Shown here: in pieces, positions 5,664 to 60,917 of the stretch
Layout: each line of letters opens with the position of its first letter
Numbering within the stretch: the first letter of the stretch is position 1
NCBI GenBank assembly: GCA_020152595.1
Contig: JAIGNY010000696.1
Coordinates: 665,001 to 729,000 of the forward strand
Reading direction: 5' to 3'
From: Chiridota heheva
Taxonomy: Eukaryota > Echinodermata > Holothuroidea > Apodida > Chiridotidae
DNA: 64,000 bases
Notes under the pieces: model-generated
Seen by the model: the letters and a program-made list of their open reading frames with translations, nothing else
What the model was told of the DNA's origin: nothing
Databases searched by the model: none
Translations under genes and position numbers: made by a program

Positions 5664-8600
5664 TGTCTCTGACTGCCCCCTCCCTGACTGCTGTCTCCCT
5701 GACTGCTCCTTCCTGACTGCCCCTCCCTGACTGCTTCTCCCTGACTGCTCCTCTCTGACTGCCCTCCTGACTGACTGCCCCTCCATGACTGCTGTCTCCT
5801 GACTGCTCTCTCTCTGACTGCCCCCCCCTGACTGCTCCTCTCTGACTGCCCCTCCCTGACTGCTCCTCTCTGACTGCCCCTCCCTGACTGCCCTCTCTGA
5901 CTGCCCCTCCCTGACTGCTCCTCTCTGACTGCCCCCCCTGACTGCTCCTCTCTGACTGCCCCTCCATGACTGTCTCCTGACTCTCCCTCTGACTGCCCCT
6001 CCCTGACTGCTCCTCTGACTGCCCCTCCCTGACTGCTCCTCTCTGACTGCCCCTCCTGACTGCTCCTCTCTGACTGCCCCCCCTGACTGCCCTCTCTGAC
6101 TGCCCCTTCCTCCCTGACTGCCCCTCCATGACTGCCCCCTGACTGCTCCTCTCTGACTGCCCCTCCTGACTGCTCCTCTCTGACTGCCCTCCATGACTGC
6201 TGTCTCCCTGACTGCCCCTCCCTGACAGCCCCTCCCTGACTGACTGCCCTCCCTGACTGCTCCCTGACTGCTCCTCTCTGACTGCCCCCTGACTGCTCCT
6301 CTCTGACTGCCCTCCTGACTGCTCCTCTCTGACTGCCCTCCCTGACTGCTCCTCTCTGACTGCCCCTCCCTGACTGCTCCTCTCTGACTGCCCCTCCTGA
6401 CTGCCCCTCCCCTGACTGCTCCTCTCCTGACTGCCCCTCCCCTGACTGCTCCTCCTGACTGCCCCTCCATGACTGCTGTCTCTCCTGACTGCCCCTCCCT
6501 GACAGCCCCTCCCTGACTGCTCCTCCTGACTGCCCCTCCCTGACTGCCCTCTCTGACTGCCCTCCTGACTGCTCCTCTCTGACTGCCCCTCCCTGACTGC
6601 TCCTCTCTGACTGCCCCTCCCTGACTGCTCCTCTCTGACTGCCCCTCCATGACTGCCCCTCCATGACTGCCCCTCCCCTGACTGCTCCTCTCTGACTGCC
6701 CTCCTGACTGCTCCTCTCTGACTGCCCCTCCATGACTGCCCCTCCATGACTGCCCCTCCTGACTGCTCCTCTCTGACTGCCCCCCTGACTGCTCCTCTCT
6801 GACTGCCCTCTCTGACTGCCCTCCTGACTGCTGTCTCCCTGACTGCCCCTCCCTGACAGCCCCTCCCTGACTGCCCTCCCTGACTGCTCCTCTCTGACTG
6901 CCCTCCCTGACTGCTGTCTCCTGACTGCCCCTCTCTGACTGCCCCTCCATGACTGCCCCTCCATGACAGCCCCTCCCTGACTGCCCCTCCCTGACTGCCC
7001 CTCCCTGACTGCTCCTCTCTGACTGCCCTCCCTGACTGCTCCTCTCTGACTGCCCTCCCTGACTGCTCCTCTCTGACTGCCCCTCCCTGACTGCTCCTCT
7101 CTGACTGACTGCCCTCCCTGACTGCCCTCCCTGACTGCTCCTCTCTGACTGCCCCTCCCTGACTGCTCCTCTCTGACTGCCCCTCCATGACTGCCCCTCC
7201 ATGACTGCCCCTCCCTGACTGCTCCTCTCTGACTGCCCCTCCCTGACTGCTCCTCTCTGACTGCCCCTCCATGACTGCCCCTCCCTGACTGCTCCTCTCT
7301 GACTGCCCTCCCTGACTGCTCCTCTCTGACTGCCCCTCCCTGACTGCTCCTCTCTGACTTCCCTCCCTGACTGCTTCTCTCTAACTGCCCCTCCATGACT
7401 GCCCCTCCCTGACTGCTCCTCTCTGACTGCCCCTCCCTGACTGCTCCTCTCTGACTGCCCCTCCCTGACTGCTCCTCTCTGACTGCCCTCCCTGACTGCT
7501 TCTCCCTGACTGCCCCTCCATGACTGCCCCTCCCTGACTGCTCCTCTCCTGACTGCCCCTCCCTGACTGCTCCTCTCTGACTGCCCCTCCCTGACTGCCC
7601 CTCCATGACTGCCCCTCCCTGACTGCTCCTCTCTGACTGCCCTCCTGACTGCTCCTCTCTGACTGCCCCTCCCTGACTGCTCCTCTCTGACTTCCCTCCC
7701 TGACTGCTTCTCTCCTGCCCCTCCATGACTGCCCCTCCCTGACTGCTCCTCTCTGACTGCCCCTCCCTGACTGCCCCCCCTGACTGCCCTCTCTGACTGC
7801 CCCTCCCTGACTGCTTCTCCCTGACTGCCCCTCCCTGACTGCTCTCTGACTGCCCCTCCCTGACTGCTCCTCTCTGACTGCCCTCCCTGACTGCTCCTCT
7901 CTGACTGCTTCTCCCTGACTGCCCCTCCCTGACTGCCCCTCCCTGACTGCTCCTCTCTGACTGCCCCTTCCCTGACTGCTTCTCCCTGACTGCCCCTCCC
8001 TGACTGCTCTCTGACTGCCCCTCCCTGACTGCTCCTCTCTGACTGCCCTCCCTGACTGCTCCTCTCTGACTGCCCTCCATGACTGCTGTCCCCTGACTGC
8101 TCCTCTCTGACTGCCCCCCCTGACTGCTCCTCTCTGACTCCCTCCCTGACTGCTTCTCTCTAACTGCCCCCTCCCCTGACTGCCCCTCCCTGACTGCTCC
8201 TCTCTGACTGCCCCTCCCTGACTGCTCCTCTCTGACTGCCCCTCCCTGACTGCTCCTCTCTGACTTCCCTCCCTGACTGCTTCTCTCTAACTGCCCCTCC
8301 ATGACTGCCCCCTGACTGCTCCTCTCTGACTGCTCCTCCCTGACTGCTCCCTCTCTGACTGCCCCTCCCTGACTGCTCCTCTCTGACTGCCCCTCCCTGA
8401 AATCCCCTACCTGACTGCCCTCCCTGACTGCTCTCTGACTGCCCCCTGACTGCCCCTCCCTGACTGCTCTCTGACTGCACCTCCCAGACTGCCCCTCCCC
8501 TGACTACTCCTCTCTGACTTCCCTCCTGACTGCTTCTCTCTAACTGCCCCTCCATGACTGCCCCTCCCTGACTGCCCCTCACTGACTGCCCCTACCTTAC

Positions 8601-9009
8601 TGCCCCTCCCTGACTTCCCTTCCCTGACTGCCCCTCTCTTACTGCCCCTACCTGACTGGCCCTCCGTGACTACCCCTCCCTGACTGCCCCTCCATGACTG
8701 CCCTCCCAGACTGCCCCTCCTGACTGCCCCTCCATGAATACCCCTCCTGACTGCCCCTCTGTGACTTCCCCTCCATGACTGCCCCTCCCTGACAGCCCCT
8801 CCCTGACTGCCCCTCCCTGACTGCTCCCCTCCCTGACTGCTTCTCTGTGACTTCCCCTCCATGACTGCCCCACCCAGACTGCCCCACCCAGACTGCCCCT
8901 CCTGACTGCCCCACCCAGACTGCCTCCCTGACTGCCCCTCCCTGACTGCCCCTCCCCTGACTGCCCCTCCCCTGACTGCCCTTCCCGACCGCCCCTCCCT
9001 GACTGCCTT
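5664..9009. repeat. C-rich 14-15 bp minisatellite, about 3.35 kb
   Basis: The unit is CTCCCTGACTGCCC with a common alternate CTCTCTGACTGCTC, repeated well over 200 times with single-base insertions, deletions and transitions. The plus strand is almost free of G outside TGACTG, so strand asymmetry is extreme. All three minus-strand frames stay open over long stretches. The longest is 888 codons (5636-8302), rich in Gly, Ser, Gln, Arg and Glu. The three frames give the same kind of peptide, and the start codons are repeat units that read ATG through a C-to-T change. I regard this as non-coding. The last part (8400-9009) is more diverged, with TTCC, CACCCAGAC and ATGA variants. Confidence 0.95.
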
Positions 9010-12516: not shown

Positions 12517-13061
12517 CCTTAAAACATGCTTTAGAAAGGAGCGGACACTAAGAAAAGTTTTGATTAATGACTGGATTCCCATACTTGTATTACCATGACT
12601 TCCCCTGCTTCTCCCAGAAGTATATAAAAGGCTGGGTTCAGCACACTTTTCATGTTTTTTTCATTTTACCTTTTTATAGTGCTTTTTTAGGTGTTTCTAG
12701 TGTCTTTTATTTTTGGGTCCAGCACACTTTTTATGTTTTTTTCTTTATTTTTTACTTTTCATAGCATACTCTTGAGCATTTTTACTTTTGTTCAGGCATT
12801 TTAATTTTGTAAAAGGCTGGGTCCAGCACACTTTTTATGTTTTCTATTTTTTCTAGCGTACTTACGGACATGTTTACTTCTTTTTTTTTTTTTCTTCGGG
12901 CATTTTATTTTTGTGTTTTTATTTTTCATTATTTTTTTTAGTTTTGGCTGTTTTTTAATTTTTTAATTTTTTAAATTTTGTTTTCACTAAAAGTGGACTG
13001 GGGTTCTGACACATTTATTATAATGTTTTCAAAGGAGTTGAGGCTGTTTTTCACCCTAAAA

Positions 13062-13632
13062 TGAGCTGGGGGTTCTGGTCCACCCTGAGGGGGTTCTGGT
13101 CCACCCTGAGGGGGTTCTGGTCCACCCTGAGGGGGTTCTGGTCCACCCTGAGGGGGTTCTGGTCCACCCTGAGGGGGTTCTGGTCCACCCTGAGGGGGTT
13201 CTGGTCCACCCTGAGGGGGTTCTGGTCCACCCTGAGGGGGTTCTGGTCCACCCTGAGGGGTTCTGGTCCACCCTGAGGGGTTCTGGTCCACCCTGAGGGG
13301 TTCTGGTCCACCCTGGGGGGGGTTCTGGTCCACCCTGAGGGGGTTCTGGTCCACCCTGAGGGGGTTCTGGTCCACCCTGAGGGGTTCTGGTCCACCCTGA
13401 GGGGGTTCTGGTCCACCCTGAGGGGGTTCTGGTCCACCCTGAGGGGTTCTGGTCCACCCTGAGGGGTTCTGGTCCACCCTGAGGGGGTTCTGGTCCACCC
13501 TGAGGGGGTTCTGGTCCACCCTGAGGGGGTTTTGGTCCACCCTGAGGGGCTTCTGGTCCACCCTGAGGGGCTTCTGGTCCACCCTGAGGGGCTTCTGGTC
13601 CACCCTGAGGGGGTTCTGGTCCACCCTGAGGC
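13062..13632. repeat. 20-21 bp minisatellite in the left arm of the fold-back element
   Basis: The unit is GGGGGTTCTGGTCCACCCTG plus A, about 27 copies. The usual 21 bp unit equals seven codons (RVDQNPL on the minus strand), while 20 bp variants shift the frame. The right arm has only three recognisable copies, at 18175-18232. The G5 runs make it G-rich on the plus strand. The peptide frames are by-products of the repeat. Confidence 0.95.
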
Positions 13633-13849
13633 ACCAGCATCGCAAGATCCTTGAAAAATTAAAAGTGGGTACTATGGGGCTCTTCGCATTCACTTTACCA
13701 AACATGAATGACCGTAAAACACTACCCACACCAGCACATTTAACCATGTGGAAAACAGCTCCAGTGATACTAGTAGGCAAAATGTATCAAATGTGTTGCT
13801 CGAGCTACAACACAAGCAAATACTCATCAGTTCTACAATTAGTAAATTC

Positions 13850-14355
13850 TATTTTCTTTTTCAAAATTTATAGCAGTGTTGCTCCAGTAGCATAAAGAAC
13901 TCTAAAGCATTTGCTGGCATGTTTCCCGGATGCACTACCATAGATAAATGACGTGTAATTTTGATAATGACATCTTTATTGCTTATGAACGATGTGATTT
14001 CTTGTTTCATATGGAGATCCTTTTTATTGCTTGATAAATATTTTATTTCACCATCAATGGTTTCGTTAAGCGGCACTCGGTGTGTCAACTGGCACTCTGC
14101 GTGTCAACGCATTATTTTGAAGTTTCAGTGCCAAAAGAATCATACTGAAGCTGTTTTAAAACCCCATACAACTTGTTAATATCTATCCCATTGCTAGTCT
14201 TTTGTGACAACAAATCGATAATGCGGATGTTTTTATTGTGATACATCAGCCATGCAGAACCCATGGCAATACACAATGATGCGCTCTACGTCAGTTCCAA
14301 TGTGCATCATTGTGTTCATCAAAACGACGTATGCATTCTTTTGACTGTTGGCCAT
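13850..14355 (-). pseudogene. Left-arm copy of a possible death-effector-like gene, truncated
   Basis: This is the inverted counterpart of 17330-17933. On the minus strand it starts with an ATG at 14355 (MANSQKNAY) and has the same helix-rich blocks, but the frame breaks after VSQ and again before a second block (NETIDGEIKYL, then PANALEFFMLLEQHCY). Compared with the right arm, roughly 110 bp are missing after HCY, which removes the C-terminal helices. It lies 3' of the TRAF-like gene in the same orientation, as in the other arm. It is not functional. For the basis of the domain guess see the right-arm entry. Confidence 0.5.
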
Positions 14356-14388
14356 AACGATATGATTACAAAAAATAAATTAAATTAT

Positions 14389-15364
14389 CTATAGTTCATC
14401 AATGGTACTGGTGTCAACTATTATTTTTATGAAAAACACATCATTGTCCACATAAGTTGAGCACACTTTGAGTGACAAATAGTGAGCACCAGTAACAATT
14501 TTCATTTCACTAATGGGTTTCTAAAACTGCTTGAAATTGGGTCTGGTTTGAACTTTTCACTTAAAGAGCGCATTCCTGTTTTTTGGTCTAAAAGCATCAT
14601 GGTAACTTTGTGTATAAAGTGCCATTTGTGGAGATCATCATAGTCACCTTTCATAATAACGAAGAACACACTCATGTGGATGTTGTTCCCTACCCCATCA
14701 CTGTTCAGATACACACGAGCACACAGTTTATACTCATAAGAAACTGTCTTACAGCCGATAGGATCCTGCCTACGTCATTTAAAAATTTTAATCTTCCATA
14801 TTAAAGTTCCGTTGTAGCTTGTTGTTCCGTGAATTTACAAACGCACATTGTGTTCAGAAAGACCTATCGCTTGAAGATTAAGCTGTGTTTCTACTGTGTT
14901 GATACGTCAATCTACACCCTGAGAGATACCTTTTACTTTATGGGTAGATTTTTCTTCCAGGGTTTGAAAGCTTTTTTTTAAAAGAGTTGTGGTATGTTTT
15001 AAATTTTTTCAACAGTGTCCTGTTTATGTTTCAAGTGTTCTATTTTTGCTGTTAGCTCTTTCTGAGTTTTGTTTAAGAACGATTCGAAAGAAGTAAGTTT
15101 TTCAAATCGTTGTATCATGGAAGATTGCATTTTCATTAACATACCTCAAATCGTTTCATTATTAGTAGGAGAAGATGATATCTTATGATACGTGTTCATT
15201 ACATTTCTTTTCCACGTGTGATTTTACCTTCCTACATAGCATTTTTTTGTCACACCCAATACTTTTATAAACACAGTTGATAATTTCATTTGGGCACTCA
15301 TTTTTAAATGATACGCAAAGTCAGTGACTGGCATATCACAATCGTTTAAGCATCTATGTTCCAT
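14389..15364 (-). pseudogene. Left-arm TRAF-like gene, frameshifted (zinc finger, coiled coil, MATH)
   Basis: Read on the minus strand from 15364. A TRAF-type zinc finger (NECPNEI, SIGC, CRKVKSH, KKCNEH) is followed by a charged coiled-coil stretch and then a MATH/TRAF-C domain (open block 14502-14714 with NIHMSVFFVIMKGDYDDL and HFIHKVTMMLLDQ). It ends at a TAG at 14389-14391. TRAF proteins are cytoplasmic adaptors that couple TNF-receptor and innate immune receptors to NF-kB and JNK signalling, binding receptors through the MATH domain. No RING is visible. Frame changes lie inside the zinc finger, the coiled coil and the MATH domain, so it cannot make a full protein now. It is closely similar to the right-arm copy, with about six differences over the 70-residue open block. 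Confidence 0.75.
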
Positions 15365-15829
15365 TTGATTAATAAAATGTTAAAAAACAGAATATTCCAC
15401 ATACCTTCAAACAGTGCCAGTAGGCTGGAGCTTGTTTTTGACCATCCACTGGTATTTAAAACAATATTTTTATATTTAGAAACATCAAAGGTAGGAACTT
15501 GCACATCAGGTGTGACCCAAGTGGTCTTTCTATATTTTCGCAGGAACCAAATGTGTAAAAATGGGGTTCTTGTTACAATACCAGGTGCGCGTATGAATCA
15601 CTACTATTGTGAAAAAACGTTTTAGGTTGGGTTAAACCGAGAAAATGCTAAAAAATTCTTCACCACTATAGACAAAACGTTTTACAAAATTTCTCTACAA
15701 CAGGACAAGCACAAACCAGAAAGGCATAAATTTTCACTTAAAGACTTTGATGTTGACAAGGAGTGTATTTACAAGTTAACAACATTGTTGTTTGAGCGTG
15801 ATAAGGAGCTTATTGCTATAGGAAAATAA
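15356..15829 (+). pseudogene. Unrecognised spacer gene with one in-frame TAG
   Basis: An ATG frame of 89 codons runs to a TAG at 15623-15625, and the same frame continues open for another 67 codons to TAA at 15827. It is followed closely by AATAAAG. The second half is Lys/Asp-rich and helical-looking (KFSLKDFDVDKECIYKL). The first half holds VVFLYFRRNQMCKNG. This lies in the single-copy centre of the fold-back element, so unlike the arm genes it has no second copy. I do not recognise the family. It may be a gene proper to the element. The start overlaps the first bases of the left-arm TRAF-like gene, so the true start may lie elsewhere. Confidence 0.35.
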
Positions 15830-15998
15830 AGAAAATACCCACACACTTCAATGGACGTTGAGTTCTAAGCACTTTAAAAACAGTTACCAGCAACGTTTCA
15901 AGCAGCACACTACTAACAATTGAAAAAATTGGGAAATCACCTTTGTGTTTTTCATACAACCGCCCCACCACACTAGACGGTTTTCAGAAGTGTGCTAT

Positions 15999-16196
15999 TC
16001 ACCACAAAAAATAGGTCTGTTCGATTCTGTAGGTGAGGATCAGCTGTTCAAGTGTACAGTTTTGAGTTTCTGACATCCGCACGTTTGCAGCTGCGATGCT
16101 TGCTGCAAATGTGATTATTTCGTGTGGGGATGACGATTTAAGAGTACAGCTATTCGTGATGTTTTTTTCTGCGGTTTCATTCACACCGCTAATCAA
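15999..16196 (-). other. Unrecognised 65-codon frame in the fold-back spacer
   Basis: This minus-strand frame has an ATG start and an ordinary residue mix, with no membrane segment. An opposite-strand frame (16096-16278) overlaps it, and I cannot tell which, if either, was coding. It sits in the unique spacer, facing the other spacer gene tail to tail. Confidence 0.2.
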
Positions 16197-16293
16197 TTCA
16201 TCTTATTTCACACTCTATGCACTTTACTTCACTGATTACCTTAAAACCACATTAAAATCACTAGAATATTTTAACTAACATTTTATGAATCAA

Positions 16294-17299
16294 ATGGAAC
16301 GTAGTTGCATAAACAATTGTGATATGCCAGTCACTGACTTGGCGTATCATTTAAAAATGAGTGCCCAGATGAAATTATCGACTTTGTTTATAAAAGTATT
16401 GGGTGTGACAAAATAATGCTATGTAGGAACTTAAAATCACACTTGAAAAACAAATGTAATGAACACGTATCATAAGATATCATCTTCTCCTACTAATAAT
16501 GAAACAATTCCAGGTACGTTAAAGAAAATGCAATTTTTCGATTTTTTGTGTGAAAAACTTACTTCTTTGAATCGTTCGTAAACAAAACTCAGAGAGAACT
16601 AACAGCAAAAACAGAAAACTTGAGACATAAACGGGTATCTGTTGAAAGAAAAGTTTTAAGATTTAAAAGTACACACGACTCTTTTGAAAAAAGGTTTCAA
16701 ACCCTGGAAGAAAAATCTACCCATAAAGTAAAAGGTATCTCTCAGGGTGTTGATTGACGTACCAACACAGTAGAAACACAGCTTCATCTTCAAGCGATAG
16801 GTCTTTCTGAACAGGATGGGCATTTTCAAATTCACGGAACAAGAAGCTACAACGGAACTTTAATATGGAAGATTAAAATATTTAAATGACGTAGGCAGGA
16901 TGCTATCGGCGGTAAGACAGTTTCTTTATACAGCCAACCGTTCTTTACCAGCAGTTATGAGTATAAACTGTGTGTGTATCTGAACGGTGATGGGGTAGGG
17001 AAAAACATCCACATGAGTTTGTTCTTCGTTATTATGAAAGGTGACTATGATGATCTCCACAAATGGCCCTTTATACACAAATTTACCATGATGCTTTTAG
17101 ACCAAAAAACAGGAATGCGCTCTTTAAGTGAAAAGTTCAAACCAGACCCAATTTCAAGCAGTTTTAGAAACCCATTAGTGAAATGAAAATTGTTACTGGT
17201 GCTCACTATTTGTCACTCAAAGTGTGCTCAACTTATGTGGACAATGATGTGTTTTTCATAAAAATAATAGTTGACACCAGTACCATTGATGTACTATAG
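16294..17299 (+). pseudogene. Right-arm TRAF-like gene, frameshifted (zinc finger, coiled coil, MATH)
   Basis: The order matches a TRAF C-terminal half. The zinc finger lies at about 16294-16465 (Cys/His pairs, then CRNLKSHLKNKCNEH). A coiled coil is at about 16570-16800 (FEKRFQTLEEKS). The MATH domain is at about 16840-17299, with NGTLIWKIK, LYSQPF in a shifted frame, YLNGDGVGKNIHMSLFFVIM, WPFIHKFTMMLLDQ, FKPDPISSSF, and a last strand FFIKIIVDTS before TAG. The MATH core GDYDDL-x3-WPF is the family signature. At least one base is lost at FRNP, and further shifts lie upstream. The same FRNPLVK break is seen in the left arm. It is a pseudogene in its present form, and the family is clear from several motifs in the correct order. 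Confidence 0.8.
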
Positions 17300-17329
17300 A
17301 TAATTGAATTTATTTTTTGTAATCATATT

Positions 17330-17933
17330 ATGGCCAACAGTCAAAAGAATGCGTACATCGTTTTGATGAACACAATGATGCACATTGGAACTGACGTAGA
17401 GCGCATCATTGCGTATTGCCATGGGTTATGCGTGGATGATGTATCACAATAAAAACATCCGCATTATCGATTTTATGTCACAAAATACCAGCAATGGGAT
17501 AGATATTAACAAGTAGTATGGGGTTTTAAAACAGCTTCAGTATGATTCTTTGGCATTGAAGCTTAAAAACAATGCGTTGACACACAGAGTGCCAGTTGAC
17601 ACACAAAGTGCCGCTTAACGAAACCATTGATGGTGAAATAAAATATTTATCAAGCAATGAAAAGGGTCTCCATATGAAACAAGAAATCACATCGTGCATG
17701 AGCAATAAAGATGTCATTATATCAAAATTACACTTCATTTATCTATGGTAGTGCACCCCGTAAACATGCCAGCAAATGCTTCAGAGTTCTTTATGCTACT
17801 GGAGCAACACTGCTATGTTACCAATGATGACATAGAATCATGGATTCAACTTGCAGAAAATTTTATGTCAGCAGACATGGAAAACCACACCGATATCATC
17901 AAAAATACACAAATTTTGAATAAGAGAAAATAA
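17330..17933 (+). pseudogene. Possible death-effector-like gene, right arm, frameshifted
   Basis: An ATG at 17330 opens MANSQKNAYIVLMNTMMHIG, with a first helical block ending in a conserved-looking IIAYCHG. After a frame change, IRIIDFMSQ and DINKLYGVLKQL follow. A second block runs from about 17600, and its open part, 17745-17933, has PANASEFFMLLEQHCYVTND, an amphipathic helix and a basic tail. Two six-helix blocks with 'L-x-L-I...C', 'FM--N', 'I--L---L' spacing resemble tandem death-effector domains as in FLIP/caspase-8 prodomains. This is a pattern guess, not a match to a signature such as the DED RxDL motif, which I do not see. It sits directly 3' of the TRAF-like gene, same strand, 30 bp away. 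An alternative is an unrelated helical protein. Confidence 0.35.
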
Positions 17934-17989
17934 AATGTACTAATTGTAGAACTGATGAGCATTTGTTTGTGTGTAGCTCAAGCAACACA

Positions 17990-18290
17990 TTTGACACATT
18001 TTGCCTACTAGTATCACTGGAAATGATTTCCACGTGGCTAAATGTGCTGGTGTGGGTAGTGCTTTACTGTCGTTCACGTTTGGCATAGTAAATGCGAAGA
18101 GCCCCATAGTACCCACTTCTATTTTTTCAGGGGATATGTTTTTTCTGATAGGATCTTGCGATGCTGGTGCCTCAGGGTGGACCAGAGCTCCTTCAGGGTG
18201 GACCAGAACACCATCAGGGTGGACCAGAACCCTATCTCATTTTAGTGCAAAAAACAGCTTCAACTCGTTTTAAGGAGATAAACCGTAATA
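17990..18290. other. Arm-end segment open on both strands
   Basis: The plus strand is open from after a TGA to 18273 (ends in GWTRTPSGWTR from three minisatellite units). The minus strand is open over the same stretch with GTMGLFAFT, LPTPAHLA and FPVILVGK. The left-arm counterpart at about 13640-13810 is also open on both strands. Between the arms the minus-direction peptide differs more conservatively, hinting that the coding direction may be inward, but the evidence is slight. I recognise no domain. Confidence 0.25.
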
Positions 18291-18691
18291 CAAACATTAT
18301 AACAAATGTGTCACAACACCAGTCCACTTAGTGAAAACAAAAATTAAAAAATCAAATATAAAAATGGCCAAAATAAAGAAATAATTAGAAATAAAATGCC
18401 TGAAAAAAAAAGGAGTAAAAATGCCCGTAAGTGCGCTAGAAAAAGTAGAAAATGAGAAAACATAAAAAGTGTGCTGGACCCAGCCTTTTACAAAAATGAA
18501 ATGCCCGCACAAAAGTAAAAAGTGCTCGAAAGTATGCTATAAGAAATAAAAATGAAAAGAAAAAAAAACATGAAAAGTGTGCTGGACCCCAAAATAAAAG
18601 ACCTGAATAGCACTAGAAACACCTAAAAGTGCACTATAAAAAGGTAAAATGAAAAAAACATGAAAAGTGTGCTGGACCCAGCCTTTTATAT

Positions 18692-19207
18692 GCTACTCTC
18701 CCACCTATTTTCACGGACCTATTTTCATTGGCTCCACATCAATGTTTAATTGATTTGGAAAGACCATAAATCAATTCTATTGACGGTTGTATATTATATA
18801 CAATCATTATTTTCAGTAACCTAAAGAATTGCTCATTTCCAGAAACTGATATATCGGTCTGGATACTTTGGGAGAAGCGATAACTTATATTTTGGTTGTA
18901 AAAGCACATGAATTTAATGTGGCAACATGTATTGTTTCTTTGTACACATCATCATAATATATGTTTTACACTTAATCATGTTATTATGGTTATGTTCTGC
19001 TGTGTTTATTTCACTTGGATACTGTATATACTGAAGGTGTACCTATGGAGAGGTCATCACAACTTTTACAAGCAGGAAAGAATACATTTCTTGATTCCTA
19101 CTTTATTGATAAATAAACCATTCTGGCCCAATCGTCAGGGCAATGACTTCCAATCTGATTTTTTTTCCCTTCAGCTTTTCAATCCATTTGCTGTTCAAGC
19201 CTATGTT
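18692..19207. other. Unique DNA after the fold-back element, no gene
   Basis: A 100-codon frame at 18908-19210 is Cys/His/Phe-rich with no recognisable domain and no coding signature. I see nothing else. Confidence 0.35.
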
Positions 19208-19290: not shown

Positions 19291-20164
19291 GATCCTTGGT
19301 TTAATTGATCTAAAATCCACAACAACAACAAAACCATTCAGAAAGCAATAAAATTCATCAAAAATGATTAAAAATTAACTGTTTTGCAGCTTTTTGGATT
19401 TTTTTGTGTTACTCTTGTGATGTAGGAACGGGTCGTAGTCTTTATTTTCTCATGTAAATCTCAGCCATTTCTCTTTGAAAAAGCAAAGATAATTCTGATG
19501 AAGATGTTTTGATCATTACCACACCCCCAACCAACCTCAAGCTGGAGAAGGCATTTGGACATTTCAAGGTCTGAAATTAAAGAAATTAGAAATACATGTA
19601 TAAATATAAACAAAAGCATTTTGAAGTGTTTCCACTTGACACTTTTTAATATATTAAAAAAAAGTCAAACTTTGATTACTTTTCACTTGAAAACTACACA
19701 TGCTATTTTCAAAGTTCAAAGACTTTTGAACTCTGAATTAAGTTTTCTGATTTGCTACTTATACATAATTAGTATATTAAGAGAATACTACAATCTGAGT
19801 GTAGTTAATTGGTCATGATTTATCACTAAAAGACAATTTAAAAATTTATTTTCAATTAGTTAATACAAATTCAGTTCAATTTCAATGAAATACAGTAAAA
19901 GCTGTTAAGAATTGCAAGGTAGGACATCATTCTGCTTTTGAAAACTCTACTTTTAAAATGTATGTACTGTTTAATATCTTTGCAATTTTCTCAATATGTC
20001 ACTACTTACAATCATTGAATATATTAAGAGAATATTAAAAGCTTAGTGTACTAAAAGCTTAGTGTATTTCATTGGTCTTGATGTATTCAAATCTGAAAGC
20101 AATTTGGATACATTAGAGAAAACAAAAATCAATTACATTTTCTTAAAATACATAGCTGTTAAGA
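19291..20164. other. AT-rich leader of the satellite with a solitary monomer
   Basis: About 19770-19950 and 20025-20200 are diverged direct repeats of each other (both have 'tattaagagaata' and 'agctgttaaga'). The first ends in one isolated satellite-like monomer at about 19912-19952 (GGACATCATTCTGCTTTTG), the second leads straight into the main array. The short open frames carry no domain. Confidence 0.5.
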
Positions 20165-23100
20165 TATTCAAGGTTGGACATCATTCTGCTTTTGAAAACT
20201 CAAGATATTCAAGGTTGGACATCATTCTGCTTTTGAAAACTCAAGATATTCAAGGTTGGACATCATTCTGCTTTTGAAAACTCAAGGTATTGAAGGTTGG
20301 ACATCATTCTGCTTTTGTAAACTCCAGGTATTCACGGTTGGACATCATTCTGCTTTTATAAACTCCAGGTATTGAAGGTTGGACATCATTCTGCTTTTGA
20401 AAACTCAAGGTATTGAAGGTTGGACATCATTCTGCTTTTGTAAACTCAAGGTATTCAAGGTTGGACATCATTCTGCTTTTGTAAGCTCAAGGTATTCAAG
20501 GTTGGACATCATTCTGCTTTTGTAAACTCAAGGTATTGAAGGTTGGACATCATTCTGCTTTTGAAAACTCAAGGTATTGAAGGTTGGACATCATTCTGCT
20601 TTTGAAAACTTAAGGTATTGAAGGTTGGACATCATTCTGCTTTTGTAAACTTAAGATATTCAAGGCTGGACATCATTCTGCTTTTGTAAACTCAAGATAT
20701 TCAAGGTTGGACATCATTCTGCTTTTGTAAACTCAAGATATTCAAGGTTGGACATCATTCTGCTTTTGAAAACTCAAGGTATTCAAGGTTGGACATCATT
20801 CTGCTTTTGAAAACTCAAGGTATTCAAGGTTGGACATCATTCTGCTTTTGTAAACTCAAGGTATTGAAGGTTGGACATCATTTTGCTTTTGAAAACTCAA
20901 GATATTCAAGGTTGGACATCATTCTGCTTTTGAAAACTCAAGGTATTGAAGGTTGGACATCATTCTGCTTTTGTAAACTCAAGATATTCAAGGTTGGACA
21001 TCATTCTGCTTTTGTAAACTTAAGATATTCAAGGTTGGACATCATTCTGCTTTTGTAAACTCAAGGTATTGAAGGTTGGACATCATTCTGCTTTTGAAAA
21101 CTCCAGGTATTGAAGGTTGGACATCATTCTGCTTTTGTAAAGTCCAGGTATTCACGGTTGGACATCATTCTGCTTTTGTAAACTCCAGGTATTGAAGGTT
21201 GGACATCATTCTGCTTTTGTAAACTTAAGATATTCAAGGCTGGACATCATTCTGCTTTTGTAAACTCAAGATATTCAAGGTTGGACATCATTCTGCTTTT
21301 GTAAACTCAAGGTATTGAAGGTTGGACATCATTCTGCTTTTGTAAACTCAAGGTATTGAAGGTTGGACATCATTCTGCTTTTGAAAACTCCAGGTATTGA
21401 AGGTTGGACATCATTCTGCTTTTGTAAAGTCCAGGTATTCACGGTTGGACATCATTCTGCTTTTAAAACTTAAGATATTCAAGGTTGGACATCATTCTGC
21501 TTTTGTAAACTCAAGGTATTGAAGGTTGGACATCATTCTGCTTTTGAAAACTCCAGGTATTGAAGGTTGGACATCATTCTGCTTTTGTAAACTCCAGGTA
21601 TTGAAGGTTGGACATCATTCTGCTTTTGTAAGCTCCAGGTATTGAAGGTTGGACATCATTCTGCTTTTGAAAACTCAAGGTATTCAAGGTTGGACATCAT
21701 TCTGCTTTTGTAAACTCAAGGTATTCAAGGTTGGACATCATTCTGTTTTTGTAAACTCCAGGTATTCAAGGTTGGACATCATTCTGCTTTTTGTAAACTC
21801 AAGGTATTCAAGGTTGGACATCATTCTGCTTTTGTAAACTTAAGATATTCAAGGTTGGACATCATTCTGCTTTTGAAAACTCCAGGTATTGAAGGTTGGA
21901 CATCATTCTGCTTTTGTAAACTCAAGATATTCAAGGTTGGACATCATTCTGCTTTTGTAAACTCCAGGTATTGAAGGTTGGACATCATTCTGCTTTTGTA
22001 AACTCAAGGTATTGAAGGTTGGACATCATTCTGCTTTTGAAAACTCAAGGTATTCAAGGTTGGACATCATTCTGCTTTTGTAAACTCAAGATATTCAAGG
22101 TTGGACATCATTCTGCTTTTGTAAACTCAAGGTATTGAAGGTTGGACATCATTCTGCTTTTGTAAACTCAAGGTATTCAAGGTTGGACATCATTCTGCTT
22201 TTGTAAACTCAAGGTATTGAAGGTTGGACATCATTCTGCTTTTGTAAACTCAAGGTATTGAAGGTTGGACATCATTCTGTTTTTGTAAACTCAAGATATT
22301 CAAAGTTGGACATCATTCTGTTTTTGTAAACTCAAGATATTCAAGGTTGGACATCATTCTGCTTTTGTAAACTCAAGATATTCAAGGCTGGACATCATTC
22401 TGCTTTTGTAAACTCAAGATATTCAAGGTTGGACATCATTCTGCTTTTGTAAACTCAAGGTATTGAAGGTTGGACATCATTCTGCTTTTGTAAACTCAAG
22501 ATATTCAAGGTTGGACATCATTCTGCTTTTTGTAAACTCAAGATATTCAAGGTTGGACATCATTCTGCTTTTGAAAACTTAAGGTATTGAAGGTTGGACA
22601 TCATTCTGCTTTTGTACACTTAAGATATTCAAGGCTGGACATTATTCTGCTTTTGTAAACTCAAGATATTCAAGGTTGGACATCATTCTGCTTTTGTAAA
22701 CTCAAGATATTCAAGGTTGGACATCATTCTGCTTTTGAAAACTCAAGGTATTCAAGGTTGGACATCATTCTGCTTTTGAAAACTCAAGGTATTCAAGGTT
22801 GGACATCATTCTGCTTTTGTAAACTCAAGGTATTGAAGGTTGGACATCATTTTGCTTTTGAAAACTCAAGATATTCAAGGTTGGACATCATTCTGCTTTT
22901 GAAAACTCAAGGTATTGAAGGTTGGACATCATTCTGCTTTTGTAAACTCAAGATATTCAAGGTTGGACATCATTCTGCTTTTGTAAACTTAAGATATTCA
23001 AGGTTGGACATCATTCTGCTTTTGTAAACTCAAGGTATTGAAGGTTGGACATCATTCTGCTTTTGAAAACTCCAGGTATTGAAGGTTGGACATCATTCTG

Positions 23101-26100
23101 CTTTTGTAAAGTCTAGGTATTCACGGTTGGACATCATTCTGCTTTTGTAAACTCCAGGTATTGAAGGTTGGACATCATTCTGCTTTTTGTAAACTCAAGG
23201 TATTCAAGGTTGGACATCATTCTGCTTTTGTAAACTCAAGGTATTCAAGGTTGGACATCATTCTGCTTTTGTAAACTCAAGGTATTGAAGGTTGGACATC
23301 ATTCTGCTTTTGTAAACTCAAGGTATTCAAGGTTGGACATCATTCTGCTTTTGTAAGCTCAAAGTATTCAAGGTTGGACATCATTCTGCTTTTGTAAACT
23401 CCAGGTATTGAAGGTTGGACATCATTCTGCTTTTGTAAACTCAAGATATTCAAGGTTGGACATCATTCTGCTTTTGTAAACTCAAGGTATTCAAGGTTGG
23501 ACATCATTCTGCTTTTGTAAACTCCAGGTATTCAAGGTTGGACATCATTCTGCTTTTGTAAACTCAAGATATTCAAGGTTGGACATCATTCTGCTTTTGT
23601 AAACTTAAGATATTCAAGGTTGGACATCATTCTGCTTTTGAAAACTCAAGGTATTGAAGGTTGGACATCATTCTGCTTTTGTAAACTCAAGATATTCAAG
23701 GTTGGACATCATTCTGCTTTTGTAAACTCCAGGTATTGAAGGTTGGACATCATTCTGCTTTTGTAAACTCCAGGTATTCACGGTTGGACATCATTCTGCT
23801 TTTGTAAACTCAAGGTATTGAAGGTTGGACATCATTCTGCTTTTGTAAACTCAAGGTATTGAAGGTTGGACATCATTCTGCTTTTGAAAACTCAAGATAT
23901 TCAAGGTTGGACATCATTCTGCTTTGAAAACTCAAGGTATTCAAGGTTGGACATCATTCTGCTTTTGTAAACTCAAGGTATTGAAGGTTGGACATCATTC
24001 TGCTTTTGTAAACTCAAGGTATTGAAGGTTGGACATCATTCTGCTTTTGTAAACTCCAGGTATTGAAGGTTGGACATCATTCTGCTTTTGAAAACTCAAG
24101 GTATTCAAGGTTGGACATCATTCTGCTTTTGAAAACTCAAGGTATTCAAGGTTGGACATCATTCTGCTTTTGTAAACTCAAGGTATTGAAGGTTGGACAT
24201 CATTTTGCTTTTGAAAACTCAAGATATTCAAGGTTGGACATCATTCTGCTTTTGAAAACTCAAGGTATTGAAGGTTGGACATCATTCTGCTTTTGTAAAC
24301 TCAAGATATTCAAGGTTGGACATCATTCTGCTTTTGTAAACTTAAGATATTCAAGGTTGGACATCATTCTGCTTTTGTAAACTCAAGGTATTGAAGGTTG
24401 GACATCATTCTGCTTTTGAAAACTCCAGGTATTGAAGGTTGGACATCATTCTGCTTTTGTAAAGTCCAGGTATTCACGGTTGGACATCATTCTGCTTTTG
24501 TAAACTCCAGGTATTGAAGGTTGGACATCATTCTGCTTTTGTAAACTTAAGATATTCAAGGCTGGACATCATTCTGCTTTTGTAAACTCAAGATATTCAA
24601 GGTTGGACATCATTCTGCTTTTGTAAACTCAAGGTATTGAAGGTTGGACATCATTCTGCTTTTGTAAACTCAAGGTATTGAAGGTTGGACATCATTCTGC
24701 TTTTGAAAACTCCAGGTATTGAAGGTTGGACATCATTCTGCTTTTGTAAAGTCCAGGTATTCACGGTTGGACATCATTCTGCTTTTAAAAACTTAAGATA
24801 TTCAAGGTTGGACATCATTCTGCTTTTGTAAACTCAAGGTATTGAAGGTTGGACATCATTCTGCTTTTGAAAACTCCAGGTATTGAAGGTTGGACATCAT
24901 TCTGCTTTTGTAAACTCCAGGTATTGAAGGTTGGACATCATTCTGCTTTTGTAAGCTCCAGGTATTGAAGGTTGGACATCATTCTGCTTTTGAAAACTCA
25001 AGGTATTCAAGGTTGGACATCATTCTGCTTTTGTAAACTCAAGGTATTCAAGGTTGGACATCATTCTGTTTTTGTAAACTCCAGGTATTCAAGGTTGGAC
25101 ATCATTCTGCTTTTGTAAACTCAAGGTATTCAAGGTTGGACATCATTCTGCTTTTGTAAACTTAAGATATTCAAGGTTGGACATCATTCTGCTTTTGAAA
25201 ACTCCAGGTATTGAAGGTTGGACATCATTCTGCTTTTGTAAACTCAAGATATTCAAGGTTGGACATCATTCTGCTTTTGTAAACTCCAGGTATTGAAGGT
25301 TGGACATCATTCTGCTTTTGTAAACTCAAGGTATTGAAGGTTGGACATCATTCTGCTTTTGAAAACTCAAGGTATTCAAGGTTGGACATCATTCTGCTTT
25401 TGTAAACTCAAGATATTCAAGGTTGGACATCATTCTGCTTTTGTAAACTCAAGGTATTGAAGGTTGGACATCATTCTGCTTTTGTAAACTCAAGGTATTC
25501 AAGGTTGGACATCATTCTGCTTTTGTAAACTCAAGGTATTGAAGGTTGGACATCATTCTGCTTTTGTAAACTCAAGGTATTGAAGGTTGGACATCATTCT
25601 GTTTTTGTAAACTCAAGATATTCAAAGTTGGACATCATTCTGTTTTTGTAAACTCAAGATATTCAAGGTTGGACATCATTCTGCTTTTGTAAACTCAAGA
25701 TATTCAAGGCTGGACATCATTCTGCTTTTGTAAACTCAAGATATTCAAGGTTGGACATCATTCTGCTTTTGTAAACTCAAGGTATTGAAGGTTGGACATC
25801 ATTCTGCTTTTGTAAACTCAAGATATTCAAGGTTGGACATCATTCTGCTTTTGTAAACTCAAGATATTCAAGGTTGGACATCATTCTGCTTTTGAAAACT
25901 TAAGGTATTGAAGGTTGGACATCATTCTGCTTTTGTACACTTAAGATATTCAAGGCTGGACATTATTCTGCTTTTGTAAACTCAAGATATTCAAGGTTGG
26001 ACATCATTCTGCTTTTGTAAACTCAAGATATTCAAGGTTGGACATCATTCTGCTTTTGAAAACTCAAGGTATTCAAGGTTGGACATCATTCTGCTTTTGA

Positions 26101-27778
26101 AAACTCAAGGTATTCAAGGTTGGACATCATTCTGCTTTTGTAAACTCAAGGTATTGAAGGTTGGACATCATTTTGCTTTTGAAAACTCAAGATATTCAAG
26201 GTTGGACATCATTCTGCTTTTGAAAACTCAAGGTATTGAAGGTTGGACATCATTCTGCTTTTGTAAACTCAAGATATTCAAGGTTGGACATCATTCTGCT
26301 TTTGTAAACTTAAGATATTCAAGGTTGGACATCATTCTGCTTTTGTAAACTCAAGGTATTGAAGGTTGGACATCATTCTGCTTTTGAAAACTCCAGGTAT
26401 TGAAGGTTGGACATCATTCTGCTTTTGTAAAGTCTAGGTATTCACGGTTGGACATCATTCTGCTTTTGTAAACTCCAGGTATTGAAGGTTGGACATCATT
26501 CTGCTTTTGTAAACTCAAGGTATTCAAGGTTGGACATCATTCTGCTTTTGTAAACTCAAGGTATTCAAGGTTGGACATCATTCTGCTTTTGTAAACTCAA
26601 GGTATTGAAGGTTGGACATCATTCTGCTTTTGTAAACTCAAGGTATTCAAGGTTGGACATCATTCTGCTTTTGTAAGCTCAAAGTATTCAAGGTTGGACA
26701 TCATTCTGCTTTTGTAAACTCCAGGTATTGAAGGTTGGACATCATTCTGCTTTTGTAAACTCAAGATATTCAAGGTTGGACATCATTCTGCTTTTGTAAA
26801 CTCAAGGTATTCAAGGTTGGACATCATTCTGCTTTTGTAAACTCCAGGTATTCAAGGTTGGACATCATTCTGCTTTTGTAAACTCAAGATATTCAAGGTT
26901 GGACATCATTCTGCTTTTGTAAACTTAAGATATTCAAGGTTGGACATCATTCTGCTTTTGAAAACTCAAGGTATTCAAGGTTGGACATCATTCTGCTTTT
27001 GTAAACTCAAGATATTCAAGGTTGGACATCATTCTGCTTTTGTAAACTCCAGGTATTGAAGGTTGGACATCATTCTGCTTTTGTAAACTCCAGGTATTCA
27101 AGGTTGGACATCATTCTGCTTTTGTAAACTCAAGGTATTGAAGGTTGGACATCATTCTGCTTTTGTAAACTCAAGGTATTGAAGGTTGGACATCATTCTG
27201 CTTTTGAAAACTCAAGATATTCAAGGTTGGACATCATTCTGCTTTGAAAACTCAAGGTATTCAAGGTTGGACATCATTCTGCTTTTGTAAACTCAAGGTA
27301 TTGAAGGTTGGACATCATTCTGCTTTTGTAAACTCAAGGTATTGAAGGTTGGACATCATTCTGCTTTTGTAAACTCCAGGTATTGAAGGTTGGACATCAT
27401 TCTGCTTTTGTAAACTCAAGGTATTCAAGGTTGGACATCATTCTGCTTTTGAAAACTCAAGGTATTCAAGGTTGGACATCATTCTGCTTTTAAAAACTCA
27501 AGATATTCAAGGTTGGACATCATTCTGCTTTTGAAAACTCAAGATATTCAAGGTTGGACATCATTCTGCTTTGAAAACTCAAGGTATTCAAGGTTGGACA
27601 TCATTCTGCTTTTGAAAACTCAAGGTATTCAAGGTTGGACATCATTCTGCTTTTGTAAACTCAAGGTATTCAAGGTTGGACATCATTTTGCTTTGAAAAC
27701 TCAAGATGTTTAAGGTTGGACATCATTTTGCTTTTAAAAACTCAAAGGTATTCAAGGTTGGACATCATTCTGCTTTTG
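20165..27778. repeat. 40 bp satellite array with a 3.32 kb higher-order period
   Basis: The monomer is GGTTGGACATCATTCTGC, TTTTG(T/A), AAACTC(A/C)A, G(G/A)TATT(C/G)AA, about 190 copies with very few gaps. Variant patterns recur at long range. A block at 20789 recurs at about 22758, 24111 and 26079. The rare variant TACACTTAAG at 22613 recurs at 25934. AAAGTCTAGG at 23109 recurs at 26430. All these give a period near 3321 bp (83 monomers), split as about 1969 plus 1353. Open frames of 60-105 codons are by-products, because three monomers equal 40 codons. No unique spacers exist, so this is not a CRISPR. Confidence 0.97.
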
Positions 27779-46009: not shown

Positions 46010-47896
46010 ACTTTGAAATGGCCATAACTTTAAAATGGCCATGACTTTAAAATGGTCATAACTTTCAACTGGCCATGACTTTCGAGTGGCCATAATTTTC
46101 AAATGGCCATAACTTTTAAATGGTCATAACTTTCAATTGGCCATAACTTTTCAATGGTCATAAGTTTCAAATGGTTATAACTTTTAAATGGTCATGATTT
46201 TTGAAAGGACCATGACGTTCAAATGGCCATAACTTTCAAATTGCCATAACTTTCAAATGGCCATAACTTTCAAATGGCCATAACTTCCAAATGGCCACAA
46301 CTTTCAAATAGCCATAACTTTCAAATGGCCATGATTTTCAAATGGCCATAACTTTCAAATTGTCATAATTTTCAAATGGCCATAACCTTCAAATGGTCAT
46401 AACTTTCTAATGGCCATAACTTTCAAATGGCCATAACTTTCAAATGGCCACAACTTTCAAATGGCCATGACTTTCAAATGGCCATGACTTTCAAATGGTC
46501 ATAACTTCCAAATGGCCATAACTTTCAAATTGCCATAACTTTCATAATGGCCATAACTTTCAAATGGCCATAACTTCTAGATGGCCACAACTTTCAAATG
46601 GCAATAACCTTTAAATGGTCATAACTTTCTAATGGCCATGACTTTCAAATGGCCATGACTTTCAAATGGTCATAACTTTCAAATGGTCATAACTTTCAAA
46701 TGGCCATAACTTTCAAATGGCCATAACTTTCTAATGGCCATAACTTTCAAATAGCCATAACTTTCAAATGGGCATGACTTTCAAATGGCCATGAATTTCA
46801 AATGGTCATGACATTCAAATGGCCATGACTTTTAAATAACCATAAATGGCCATAACCTTTAAATGGTCATAACTTTGTAATGGCCATGACTTTCAAATGG
46901 CCATAACTTTCAAATGGTCATAACTTTCAAATGGCTGTAATTTTCAAATGGCCATAACTTTCAAATGGCCATAACTTTGTAATGACCATAACTTTCTAAT
47001 GGCCATAACGTTCAAATGGCCATAATGTTCAAATGGCCATAACTTTCAAATGACCATGACTTTCAAATGGCCATGACTTTCAAATGGTCATGACATTCAA
47101 ATGGCCATGACTTTCAAACGGCCATGACTTTCAAATGGTAATTACTTTCAAATGGTCATAACTTTCAAATGGCCATAACTTTCAAATAACCATAAATGGC
47201 CATAACCTTTAAATGGTCATAACTTTCTAATGGCCATAACTTTCAAATGACATGATTTTTAAATGGCCATGACTTTCAAATGGTCATGACATTTAAATGG
47301 CCATGACTTTCAAATAACCATAAATGGCCATAACCTTTAAATGGTCATAACTTTCTAATGGCCATGACTTTCAGATGGTCATAACTTTCAAATGGTCATA
47401 ACTTTCAAATGGCTATAATTTTCAAATGGCCATAACTTTCAAATGGCCATAACCTTTAAATGGCCATAACTTTCTAATGGCCATAACTTTCAAATGGCCA
47501 TAACTTTCAAATGGCCATGACTTTTAAATGGCCATGACTTTCAAATGGTCATGACATTCAAATGGCCATGACTTTCAAATGGCCATGACTTTCAAATGGC
47601 CATGACTTTCAAATGGTAATTACTTTCAAATGGCCATGACTTTCAAGTGGCCATGACTTTCAAATGGCCATGACTTTCAAATGGCCATGACTTTTAAATA
47701 GCCATGACTTTCAAGTGGCCATGACTTTCAAATGGCCATGACTTTCAAATGGCCATGACTTTCAAATGGCCATGACTTTCAAATGACCATGACTTTCAAG
47801 TGGCCATGACTTTCAAATGGTCATAACTTTCAAATGGCCATGACTTTCAAATGGCCTTAACTTTCAAATGGGCATGACTTTCAAATGGGCATGACT
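46010..47896. repeat. 17 bp minisatellite ATGGCCATAACTTTCAA
   Basis: About 110 copies. The first half favours ATAACTTTCAA, the last quarter ATGACTTTCAA. Most units contain ATGGCCAT, which is its own reverse complement. At 17 bp the unit shifts frame each time, and stops are frequent, so no long frame arises. Confidence 0.96.
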
Positions 47897-48215
47897 TTTG
47901 ATTCCTTGGTCCAGTTTTGCTGAAATTGTGGATTTTCTGTGTCTTTCAATAAACAAACATGCAGACTAAATGTCATCAAAATCTGATTCTTAAGTGAATT
48001 AATCTAAAAAATATATACTGGGTGATTTGTGATATGACCCTGTATCATCAATGTATGGTTAGAAGTGGTCAAAAGATAAATTAGTTCTCAGTTTACTAAC
48101 CTCCCAAGTTGATGAGAATTATATTGCTTCATTTCACAAACAACCACCACATTTGAGAATTTAGTCAACTGTGCCTGGGTGAATCCTGGTATTGTTTTCA
48201 CTTTCAAACCTAGTT
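47897..48215. other. Unique DNA, no gene
   Basis: I see nothing supported here. Confidence 0.3.
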
Positions 48216-60012: not shown

Positions 60013-60917
60013 AATAAAAGTTGCCTCGGTTCTTCTTTATGTCATTAAGCATGCAACTATCCATCTTCATTAGTGTCATTTACCTGTAAGTGTTTGTTGG
60101 CAAGAAGTTCTCATGTCCAGATTTTATGCAACGAACTGATGAAGATGCAAGGCCAACTCGGCTTTGATTGTTAGATGTGGGAGAATTACCATGCCTCTTT
60201 CTTCCTTATAAGTAAGTTTTGCCCTCTAGGTTTTAAGAGGCACATGAACTTGAAGAAATTTTGAAGATGAGATTAGATATACAATATTTATAAAGGGATT
60301 TCAGTCACATCACACGTAAAACAAACAGACTCGATCTAAATCATACGCTGGGCGAGTAAAACACGTGCTGGGCATATAAATATGTGCTGGTTAAAATGAA
60401 CCGGCCAGATGAATACATTTTTGTATATAAAATGTTATTTTAAAAAATAATGATAATAATAAAAAATAAAAAAAAATAAAAAAACAGTCTCTCCTACAAA
60501 ATAGTGATGTAAACAAAGTCATGTGACCTCATGACATCAGCTGAAACATCCTTATATACAAACTGATTATTTGTGACAAATTGATAAAATTTTGTAAGTC
60601 TTCAAGGAATGGTGTACAGGTTGGAAGGGATAAGAGCTATATGTCAAAATAAAATCTTTCAAAAATGATATCAGATTTTAGCACAAAATCATTAAAATCA
60701 GTTAAATAGTAAGTAGAGGTCTGAATGTAAGACGCCTCTGACATACAGTAGATTTGTTGTTACGTTTTTGGTGAATTTCTAGTAATAATTTTAGGATTTA
60801 GGATGATGCTGATTTAAATGTCTGTAAAAGTTGTCTGTTTAATAGTTTTTATTGAAAAGAGTAGTAGTAGCTTACATTTCAAGTAAAAGAGTGTAAATTT
60901 TGAAGAAAAAACCCAAC
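60013..60917. other. AT-rich DNA, no gene
   Basis: An A/T-only low-complexity patch lies at 60424-60484. Nothing else is supported. Confidence 0.3.

What the first reader, a model, noticed from the sequence alone, without database searches (positions are those of the whole stretch)
12622..18691. Fold-back element that carries a TRAF-like gene in each arm
Seen: two inverted arms of 2.4-2.75 kb with matching tips, three subterminal motif copies each, and a unique centre. Both arms contain TRAF-type zinc finger, coiled coil and MATH motifs in the correct order. Known: MATH/TRAF proteins steer NF-kB and cell-death signalling, and large DNA viruses and virus-like transposons often capture such regulators. 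Inference: this is cargo of a mobile or viral element, not a host gene. I know of no described element with this arrangement.
Basis: partly seen in the sequence, partly recalled or inferred. Interest (0 to 1): 0.78.

Follow-up and report, generated by a model that had tools for sequence, protein, structure and literature searches.

The report
Maverick-like element with doubled TRAF3 gene
A decayed, virus-like jumping element in what looks like an animal genome carries, in mirror image in its two ends, broken intron-less copies of the immune-signalling gene TRAF3; elements whose ends stretch inwards are known, but I found no report of one of this kind carrying TRAF3.

Summary
Two inverted arms (12616-15382, 16276-18697; 91.9% identical outside a minisatellite) enclose an 893-bp centre, carry three tip-motif copies each, and each hold a broken TRAF-type gene (MATH 3e-26 and 4e-22; nearest solved structure TRAF3). 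The same tips occur on eight other contigs of the 1.1-Gb assembly. Elements with these or related ends encode an rve integrase and a family-B-type polymerase, start AGTAGT, and leave a 5-bp target duplication (4 of 5 two-ended elements, this one included: CTCCC). So it is a non-autonomous, Maverick-like element, not a host gene duplicated in place. The host TRAF3-type gene has an intron inside MATH; the element's copies do not. Against host TRAF3, synonymous sites are saturated and 24% of non-synonymous sites differ: long restraint on the protein. Between the arms there are 0 synonymous and 10 non-synonymous changes: decay. Both arms share stops and frame changes. Best reading: a captured TRAF3 copy beside one terminal repeat was swallowed when that repeat grew inward. 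The TRAF segment was found nowhere else in this genome at DNA level. New variant of a known kind.

The parts
12611..12615 (.). left target-site duplication CTCCC
   Evidence: exact 5-bp match directly outside both tips; random 5-mer pairs in this window match at 0.2%
12616..15382 (+). left arm (extended terminal inverted repeat), starts AGAAGTATATAAAAGG
12634..12843 (+). three copies of the tip motif (12634-12658, 12715-12739, 12819-12843)
   Evidence: same motif at the tips of other elements
12967..13029 (+). subterminal stretch shared with a second subfamily of elements (C2282, C1360), so the terminal repeat is a mosaic
13068..13631 (+). 21-bp minisatellite, 27 copies
15183..15379 (-). left-arm TRAF-type zinc-finger remnant (frame broken)
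   Evidence: Pfam zf-TRAF 6.6e-4, below cut-off; ORF pieces
14389..14774 (-). left-arm MATH domain in two frame pieces (14502-14774, 14389-14520)
   Evidence: Pfam TRAF-mep_MATH 3.9e-22 for the first piece, no hit for the second
15383..16275. centre without partner in the other arm; no match in the fetched relatives given
   Evidence: genome search with it did not complete
16276..18697 (-). right arm (inverted copy)
16279..16475 (+). right-arm TRAF-type zinc-finger remnant (frame broken in the same region as on the left)
   Evidence: Pfam zf-TRAF 0.035 for 16338-16475, no hit for 16279-16416; ORF pieces
16554..16889 (+). right-arm stretch between finger and MATH with two in-frame stops shared by both arms; 16758-16889 aligns with the host TRAF3-type exon
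16890..17299 (+). right-arm MATH domain in two frame pieces (16890-17186, 17168-17299)
   Evidence: Pfam 3.1e-26 for the first piece, none for the second; human TRAF3 1kzz 1.6e-35
18172..18230 (-). 21-bp minisatellite, 2.8 copies
18457..18679 (-). three copies of the tip motif (18457-18481, 18565-18589, 18655-18679)
18698..18702 (.). right target-site duplication CTCCC

Best explanation
A non-autonomous, decayed member of a family of virus-like DNA elements related to Polintons/Mavericks (family-B-type polymerase plus retroviral-type integrase). Steps: (1) an intron-less TRAF3 copy was captured by an element of this family and evolved for long under restraint on its protein sequence (shown: no intron at the tested place, saturated synonymous and restrained non-synonymous change; inferred: that this happened inside the element, and that it served by tuning NF-kB/interferon or cell-death signalling). 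(2) The gene lay beside one terminal repeat; by conversion or strand-switching that copied one end onto the other, the repeat grew inward and took the gene along, giving two mirror copies and a short unique centre (inferred; relatives have shorter repeats). (3) The fold-back form integrated as one unit, with enzymes from full-length relatives (shown: 5-bp duplication outside the two tips; inferred: enzymes in trans). (4) Both copies decay (shown).
For: Tips on 8 contigs besides the window's. C494 (L048): integrase (rve 3e-8, above cut-off) and polymerase region (Pfam DNA_pol_B 0.036, below cut-off; motif YTDTDS) on one strand, ending near the tip; C2282: rve (1.2e-7, 32.4 bits, just under the 32.6 cut-off) between its tips, and a stretch matching the C494 polymerase region. 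Relatives' ends mostly start AGTAGT, the (AGT)2 motif given for vertebrate Mavericks in PMC8097293 (passages). 5-bp duplication exact in 4 of 5 two-ended elements. Host TRAF3-type gene on C3659: exon ends inside MATH at a GT donor, next exon about 4.6 kb on; the element is continuous there. Right arm versus host pS 0.84, pN 0.24 over 176 codons; left arm versus host pS 0.87, pN 0.30 over 118; arm versus arm 0 synonymous, 10 non-synonymous over 131 codons. Inverted ends of relatives as best blocks: about 424 bp (C1449), 221 plus 365-388 (C1259), 399-436 (C1360), about 230 (C2482), 120 (C2282), against 2.4-2.8 kb here.
Against: No polymerase, integrase or capsid gene was found in the window element itself. 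The family's duplication is 5 bp, Mavericks' is 6; C1360 has none. The two tips here differ at 2 of the first 6 positions. Tip boundaries of relatives were set by eye with the flanks in view. No TRAF-bearing parent was found in this genome (one search scored 40 of 66 candidates). Three stops and two frame changes are shared by both arms, so the gene was dead before doubling, or the arms were homogenised later. On 96 residues the element shares 66 with host TRAF3 and 59 with human, but host and human share 75 of 98, so the donor species is open. Base composition differs between element and host exon, which inflates synonymous change.
Confidence: 0.72

Rival explanations
1. Local inverted duplication of a host TRAF gene or TRAF retrocopy, with no mobile element involved.
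For: The TRAF segment was found at DNA level only in this one locus; lesions shared by both arms fit duplication of an already dead copy.
Against: Arms end exactly at tips that occur at the ends of polymerase/integrase elements elsewhere; 5-bp duplication outside both tips; the host intron is absent.
Confidence: 0.05
2. Doubling in place: one element with one TRAF copy inserted, and one of its ends was later copied over the other by repair or template switching.
For: Shared stops and frame changes; only one such locus.
Against: None decisive: it predicts the same CTCCC outside both tips and differs from the best explanation only in whether doubling came before or after insertion.
Confidence: 0.17
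3. A Foldback/Galileo-type (P-superfamily) transposon with long, internally repetitive terminal repeats that picked up TRAF.
For: Same look: very long terminal repeats with inner minisatellite and copy-number difference between arms; PMC3573991 describes this for Galileo (passages).
Against: Tips belong to polymerase/integrase elements; 5-bp duplication, while Galileo's is 7 bp.
Confidence: 0.03
4. Two neighbouring solo ends of TRAF-bearing elements inserted head to head, the centre being host DNA.
For: The centre has no match in the fetched relatives.
Against: Two separate insertions would not share one target duplication across the outer ends.
Confidence: 0.03

Closest known systems
Polinton/Maverick elements (PMC8097293, PMC4028283, PMC6431247; passages seen)
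   Same: relatives have a family-B-type polymerase, an rve integrase and inverted ends starting (AGT)2; growth of Polinton inverted repeats is cited in PMC3573991
   Different: 5-bp instead of 6-bp duplication; no core gene was found in the window element; its 2.4-2.8 kb terminal repeats hold a TRAF3 gene
Galileo of Drosophila, copies with extended terminal repeats (PMC3573991, passages)
   Same: non-autonomous copies whose terminal repeats recruited inner sequence and can hold tandem repeats
   Different: P-element superfamily, 7-bp duplication; the recruited sequence described is the element's own, not a captured gene
Viral TRAF ORF111L of ISKNV, an iridovirus of fish (PMC3352826, abstract)
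   Same: TRAF-like gene in a DNA virus; binds TRADD and acts through caspase 8
   Different: unrelated virus; effect compared there with zebrafish TRAF2; a working gene, not a fossil
Burro giant retroelements of planarians (PMC6431247, passages)
   Same: mobile element with a MATH/TRAF-C motif beside apoptosis-related motifs
   Different: Gypsy-like LTR retroelement; the motif is part of a polyprotein

Membership tests
[quoted passage not shown]
   Not found in the window element. In tip-sharing relatives motifs were read by eye (recalled as typical); Pfam DNA_pol_B 0.036 in L048, below cut-off; Endonuclease_7-type finger 0.0013, below cut-off
Polinton/Maverick | retroviral-type (rve) integrase | tested here: inconclusive
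   Relatives: rve 3e-8 in C494 and 1.2e-7 (0.2 bits under cut-off) in C2282 between its tips. Not found in the window element
Polinton/Maverick | terminal inverted repeats with 5'-(AGT)2 or (AG)3 ends | tested here: met
   AGTAGT at most ends of relatives; AGAAGT and AGTAGC here; motif from PMC8097293
Polinton/Maverick | 6-bp target-site duplication | tested here: not met
   5 bp in 4 of 5 two-ended elements, none in the fifth
Polinton/Maverick | packaging ATPase, protease, major and minor capsid genes | tested here: inconclusive
   IVa2-type ATPase 5.4e-5 and rve 7.9e-11 lie 5.3-7.8 kb from one tip in L049, match the separate Polinton L009 and may be a nested element; none found in the window element
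TRAF3 | TRAF-C/MATH domain nearest to TRAF3 | tested here: met
   3.1e-26; TRAF3 first; host TRAF3-type gene 71%, other host genes 34-49%
TRAF3 | TRAF zinc fingers | tested here: inconclusive
   zf-TRAF 0.035 and 6.6e-4, below cut-off
TRAF3 | N-terminal RING finger | tested here: inconclusive
   no RING hit among the 19 element ORF pieces scanned; part of the centre (15830-16278) was not scanned
TRAF3 | intact reading frame | tested here: not met
   stops and frame changes in both arms
Galileo/Foldback | 7-bp duplication | tested here: not met
   5 bp
Galileo/Foldback | P-type transposase | tested here: inconclusive
   no such hit in Pfam scans of the pieces given; no dedicated search

The most novel reading that the evidence does not exclude
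The tip-sharing elements are a separate lineage of animal DNA viruses or virus-like elements (5-bp duplication, polymerase with an endonuclease-VII-type finger, an integrase that matches the neighbouring canonical Polinton's over one short stretch only), and one branch carried a working TRAF3 copy as a regulator of the host's NF-kB/interferon response, later doubled by inclusion in both terminal repeats.
Probability: 0.25. Interest if true: 0.75.

Novelty: new variant of a known kind. Interest (0 to 1): 0.5.

Why it matters
TRAF3 sits at the fork between NF-kB and interferon signalling (general knowledge). A TRAF3 copy kept under restraint in a Maverick-like lineage would be evidence that such elements met, and tried to steer, animal innate immunity, which bears on whether Mavericks live as infectious viruses. 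The doubled arms also show how terminal repeats of such elements can swallow a neighbouring gene.

Tried and rejected
Death-effector-like reading of the ORFs between MATH and the minisatellite (e.g. 17709-17933, 14233-14379): no such Pfam hit, only matches I take as chance in solved structures and none, single-sequence fold with mean pLDDT 46.9: dropped. Link between the tip at C426:838 kb and the Polinton at C426:809-819 kb: not shown, retroelement ORFs lie between. Similarity of L010 capsid-like ORFs to the L009 ORF that I took for a Polinton minor capsid: blastp E 0.01 in a two-sequence set, phmmer none: too weak to use. IMG/VR: 0 for the tip pattern; no relative confirmed for the MATH piece and three pieces of relatives. 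MATH piece in phage records: no match. Rfam at gathering score: 0. One search mixed several loci in one file and is not used. Papers: the held library has 0 papers with both Polinton and TRAF3; of 377 papers with two of Polinton/Maverick/TRAF I saw the 25 listed, none titled on this ('TRAF' there also matches 'traffic'); further listings. Opened: PMC4028283, PMC8097293, PMC6431247, PMC3573991 (passages) and PMC3352826 (abstract and outline).
Full report
Observation. Two inverted arms, 12616-15382 and 16276-18697, enclose an 893-bp centre. Outside the 21-bp minisatellite they are 91.9% identical over 2149 aligned bases, K2P 0.086. Six copies of the tip motif, three per arm, are the only ones in the window. 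The minisatellite has 27 copies on the left and 2.8 on the right. Each arm holds a TRAF-type gene read outward to its tip: MATH 3.1e-26 (right) and 3.9e-22 (left), zinc finger only weakly. The best solved structure is human TRAF3, ahead of TRAF5, 2, 1, 4 and 6. A coiled coil was not tested with a predictor.

Whose element. The window is part of C693 of a 1.1-Gb assembly with 3744 contigs; that it is an animal is my inference from its intron-bearing TRAF genes. A genome search with the right arm (40 of 66 candidates scored, so counts are lower bounds) finds the TRAF part only in the two arms, but parts of the outer 330 bp on eight other contigs (C494, C2482, C1449, C1259, C3644, C426, C2170, C3689), and a subterminal stretch of up to about 160 bp on 21 further contigs. 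Several come as inverted pairs 8-21 kb apart. Beside or between such ends lie an rve integrase (C494 3e-8; C2282 1.2e-7, 0.2 bits under the cut-off) and a family-B-type polymerase (motifs YLDANNLYG and YTDTDS, recalled as typical; Pfam DNA_pol_B only 0.036) with an Endonuclease_7-type finger (0.0013, below cut-off). The ends read AGTAGTATATAAAAGG or close to it in relatives, AGAAGT and AGTAGC here. PMC8097293 (passages) gives (AGT)2 as one of two end motifs of vertebrate Mavericks, with 6-bp duplications.

Insertion. Directly outside the two tips stands CTCCC. Here the tip positions coincide with the arm ends found without regard to flanks. The same 5-bp rule holds exactly for C2482 (AGTTT), C1259 (AGAAC) and C2282 (GGATG) and fails for C1360: 4 of 5 two-ended elements; C1449 could not be read because its left tip is lost. 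Random 5-mer pairs in this window match at 0.2%. In the relatives the tip boundary was set by eye with the flank in view, in C1259 with a shortened and in C2282 with a changed right tip, which favours a match. The duplication lies outside the whole fold-back: either the fold-back form inserted as one unit, or one end was later copied over the other inside the inserted element.

The TRAF gene. A MATH protein search of the genome gives, besides the arms, C3659 at 71% identity, three genes within 90 kb on C561 (47-49%), C569 (44%), C1767 (47%) and C3 (34%). C3659 is the host's TRAF3-type gene (75 of 98 residues shared with human TRAF3): its exon ends inside MATH at a GT donor, and the next exon lies about 4.6 kb downstream. 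The element's copies run through that place without an intron, so they descend from a spliced copy. Right arm and host differ at 84% of synonymous but 24% of non-synonymous sites over 176 codons; left arm 87% and 30% over 118. Base composition differs between the genes, which adds to synonymous change, yet the protein was clearly restrained. Between the arms there are 0 synonymous and 10 non-synonymous changes in 131 codons, compatible with no selection. On 96 residues the element shares 59 with human and 66 with host TRAF3: a long branch, donor open.

State of the gene. Three TGA codons in the frame of the MATH piece stand at the same place in both arms, the third just behind the frame change; two frame changes, in the finger and near the end of MATH, fall in the same places too (ORF coordinates). 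Either the gene was dead before it was doubled, or conversion between arms spread the lesions. Conversion is plausible: there is a 210-bp identical run, and a 337-bp span with only four mismatches inside it is longer than in any of 2000 permutations of the mismatches over arms that are otherwise 93% identical. Present function is therefore unlikely; I name no mends.

Mechanism. Inverted ends of relatives match as blocks of 120 to about 430 bp (C1259: 221 plus 365-388 bp, with a retroelement ORF between them on the right), and in C1259 and C1449 the block reaches the end of the polymerase region. Here the repeat is 2.4-2.8 kb. Repeat growth by copying one end plus adjoining inner sequence onto the other end is the explanation given for Galileo, where the longest repeats are in non-autonomous copies, and that paper cites the same for Polintons (PMC3573991, passages). 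The outer repeat here is a mosaic: 12616-12955 matches one subfamily and 12967-13029 another, which also speaks for exchange between ends. Which came first, doubling or insertion, is not settled.

Known or new. TRAF-like genes in DNA viruses (ISKNV ORF111L, PMC3352826, abstract) and a MATH/TRAF-C motif in a retroelement (Burro, PMC6431247, passages) are on record. No held paper contains both 'Polinton' and 'TRAF3'. Because the 6-bp duplication was tested and not met and core genes were not found here, I call it Maverick-like and do not file it as a member.

Noticed in passing
window 5669-9007, 20161-27778, 46010-47898, 60914-62735: Very large minisatellite arrays (14-bp x 243, 41-bp x 186, 17-bp x 112, 57-bp x 32 copies) in one 64-kb window.
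   Followed up: no
L009 (C426:809000-818999): A separate Polinton: IVa2-type ATPase 1.9e-6, rve 1.7e-6 (below cut-off), capsid- and polymerase-like ORFs by eye.
   Followed up: partly
L049 (C3644:108700-117500): Tip and polymerase of the present family followed on the same strand by ATPase and rve genes like those of L009: nested element or chimera.
   Followed up: partly
C561:1218377, 1262949, 1306459: Three host TRAF genes within 90 kb with open MATH exons, 47-49% identical to the element piece: a local TRAF expansion.
   Followed up: no
window 14112-14379 and 17300-17751: ORF pieces just after MATH, conserved between arms, without a convincing family match in the pieces scanned.
   Followed up: partly
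L044/L045 (C1449, about 222480-227500): About 5 kb of N between the two ends of this element: assembly gap or withheld stretch.
   Followed up: no
window 12616-12640 and reverse complement of 18673-18697: The tip TATATAAAAGG looks like a TATA box facing inward at each end; could be a promoter (by eye only).
   Followed up: no
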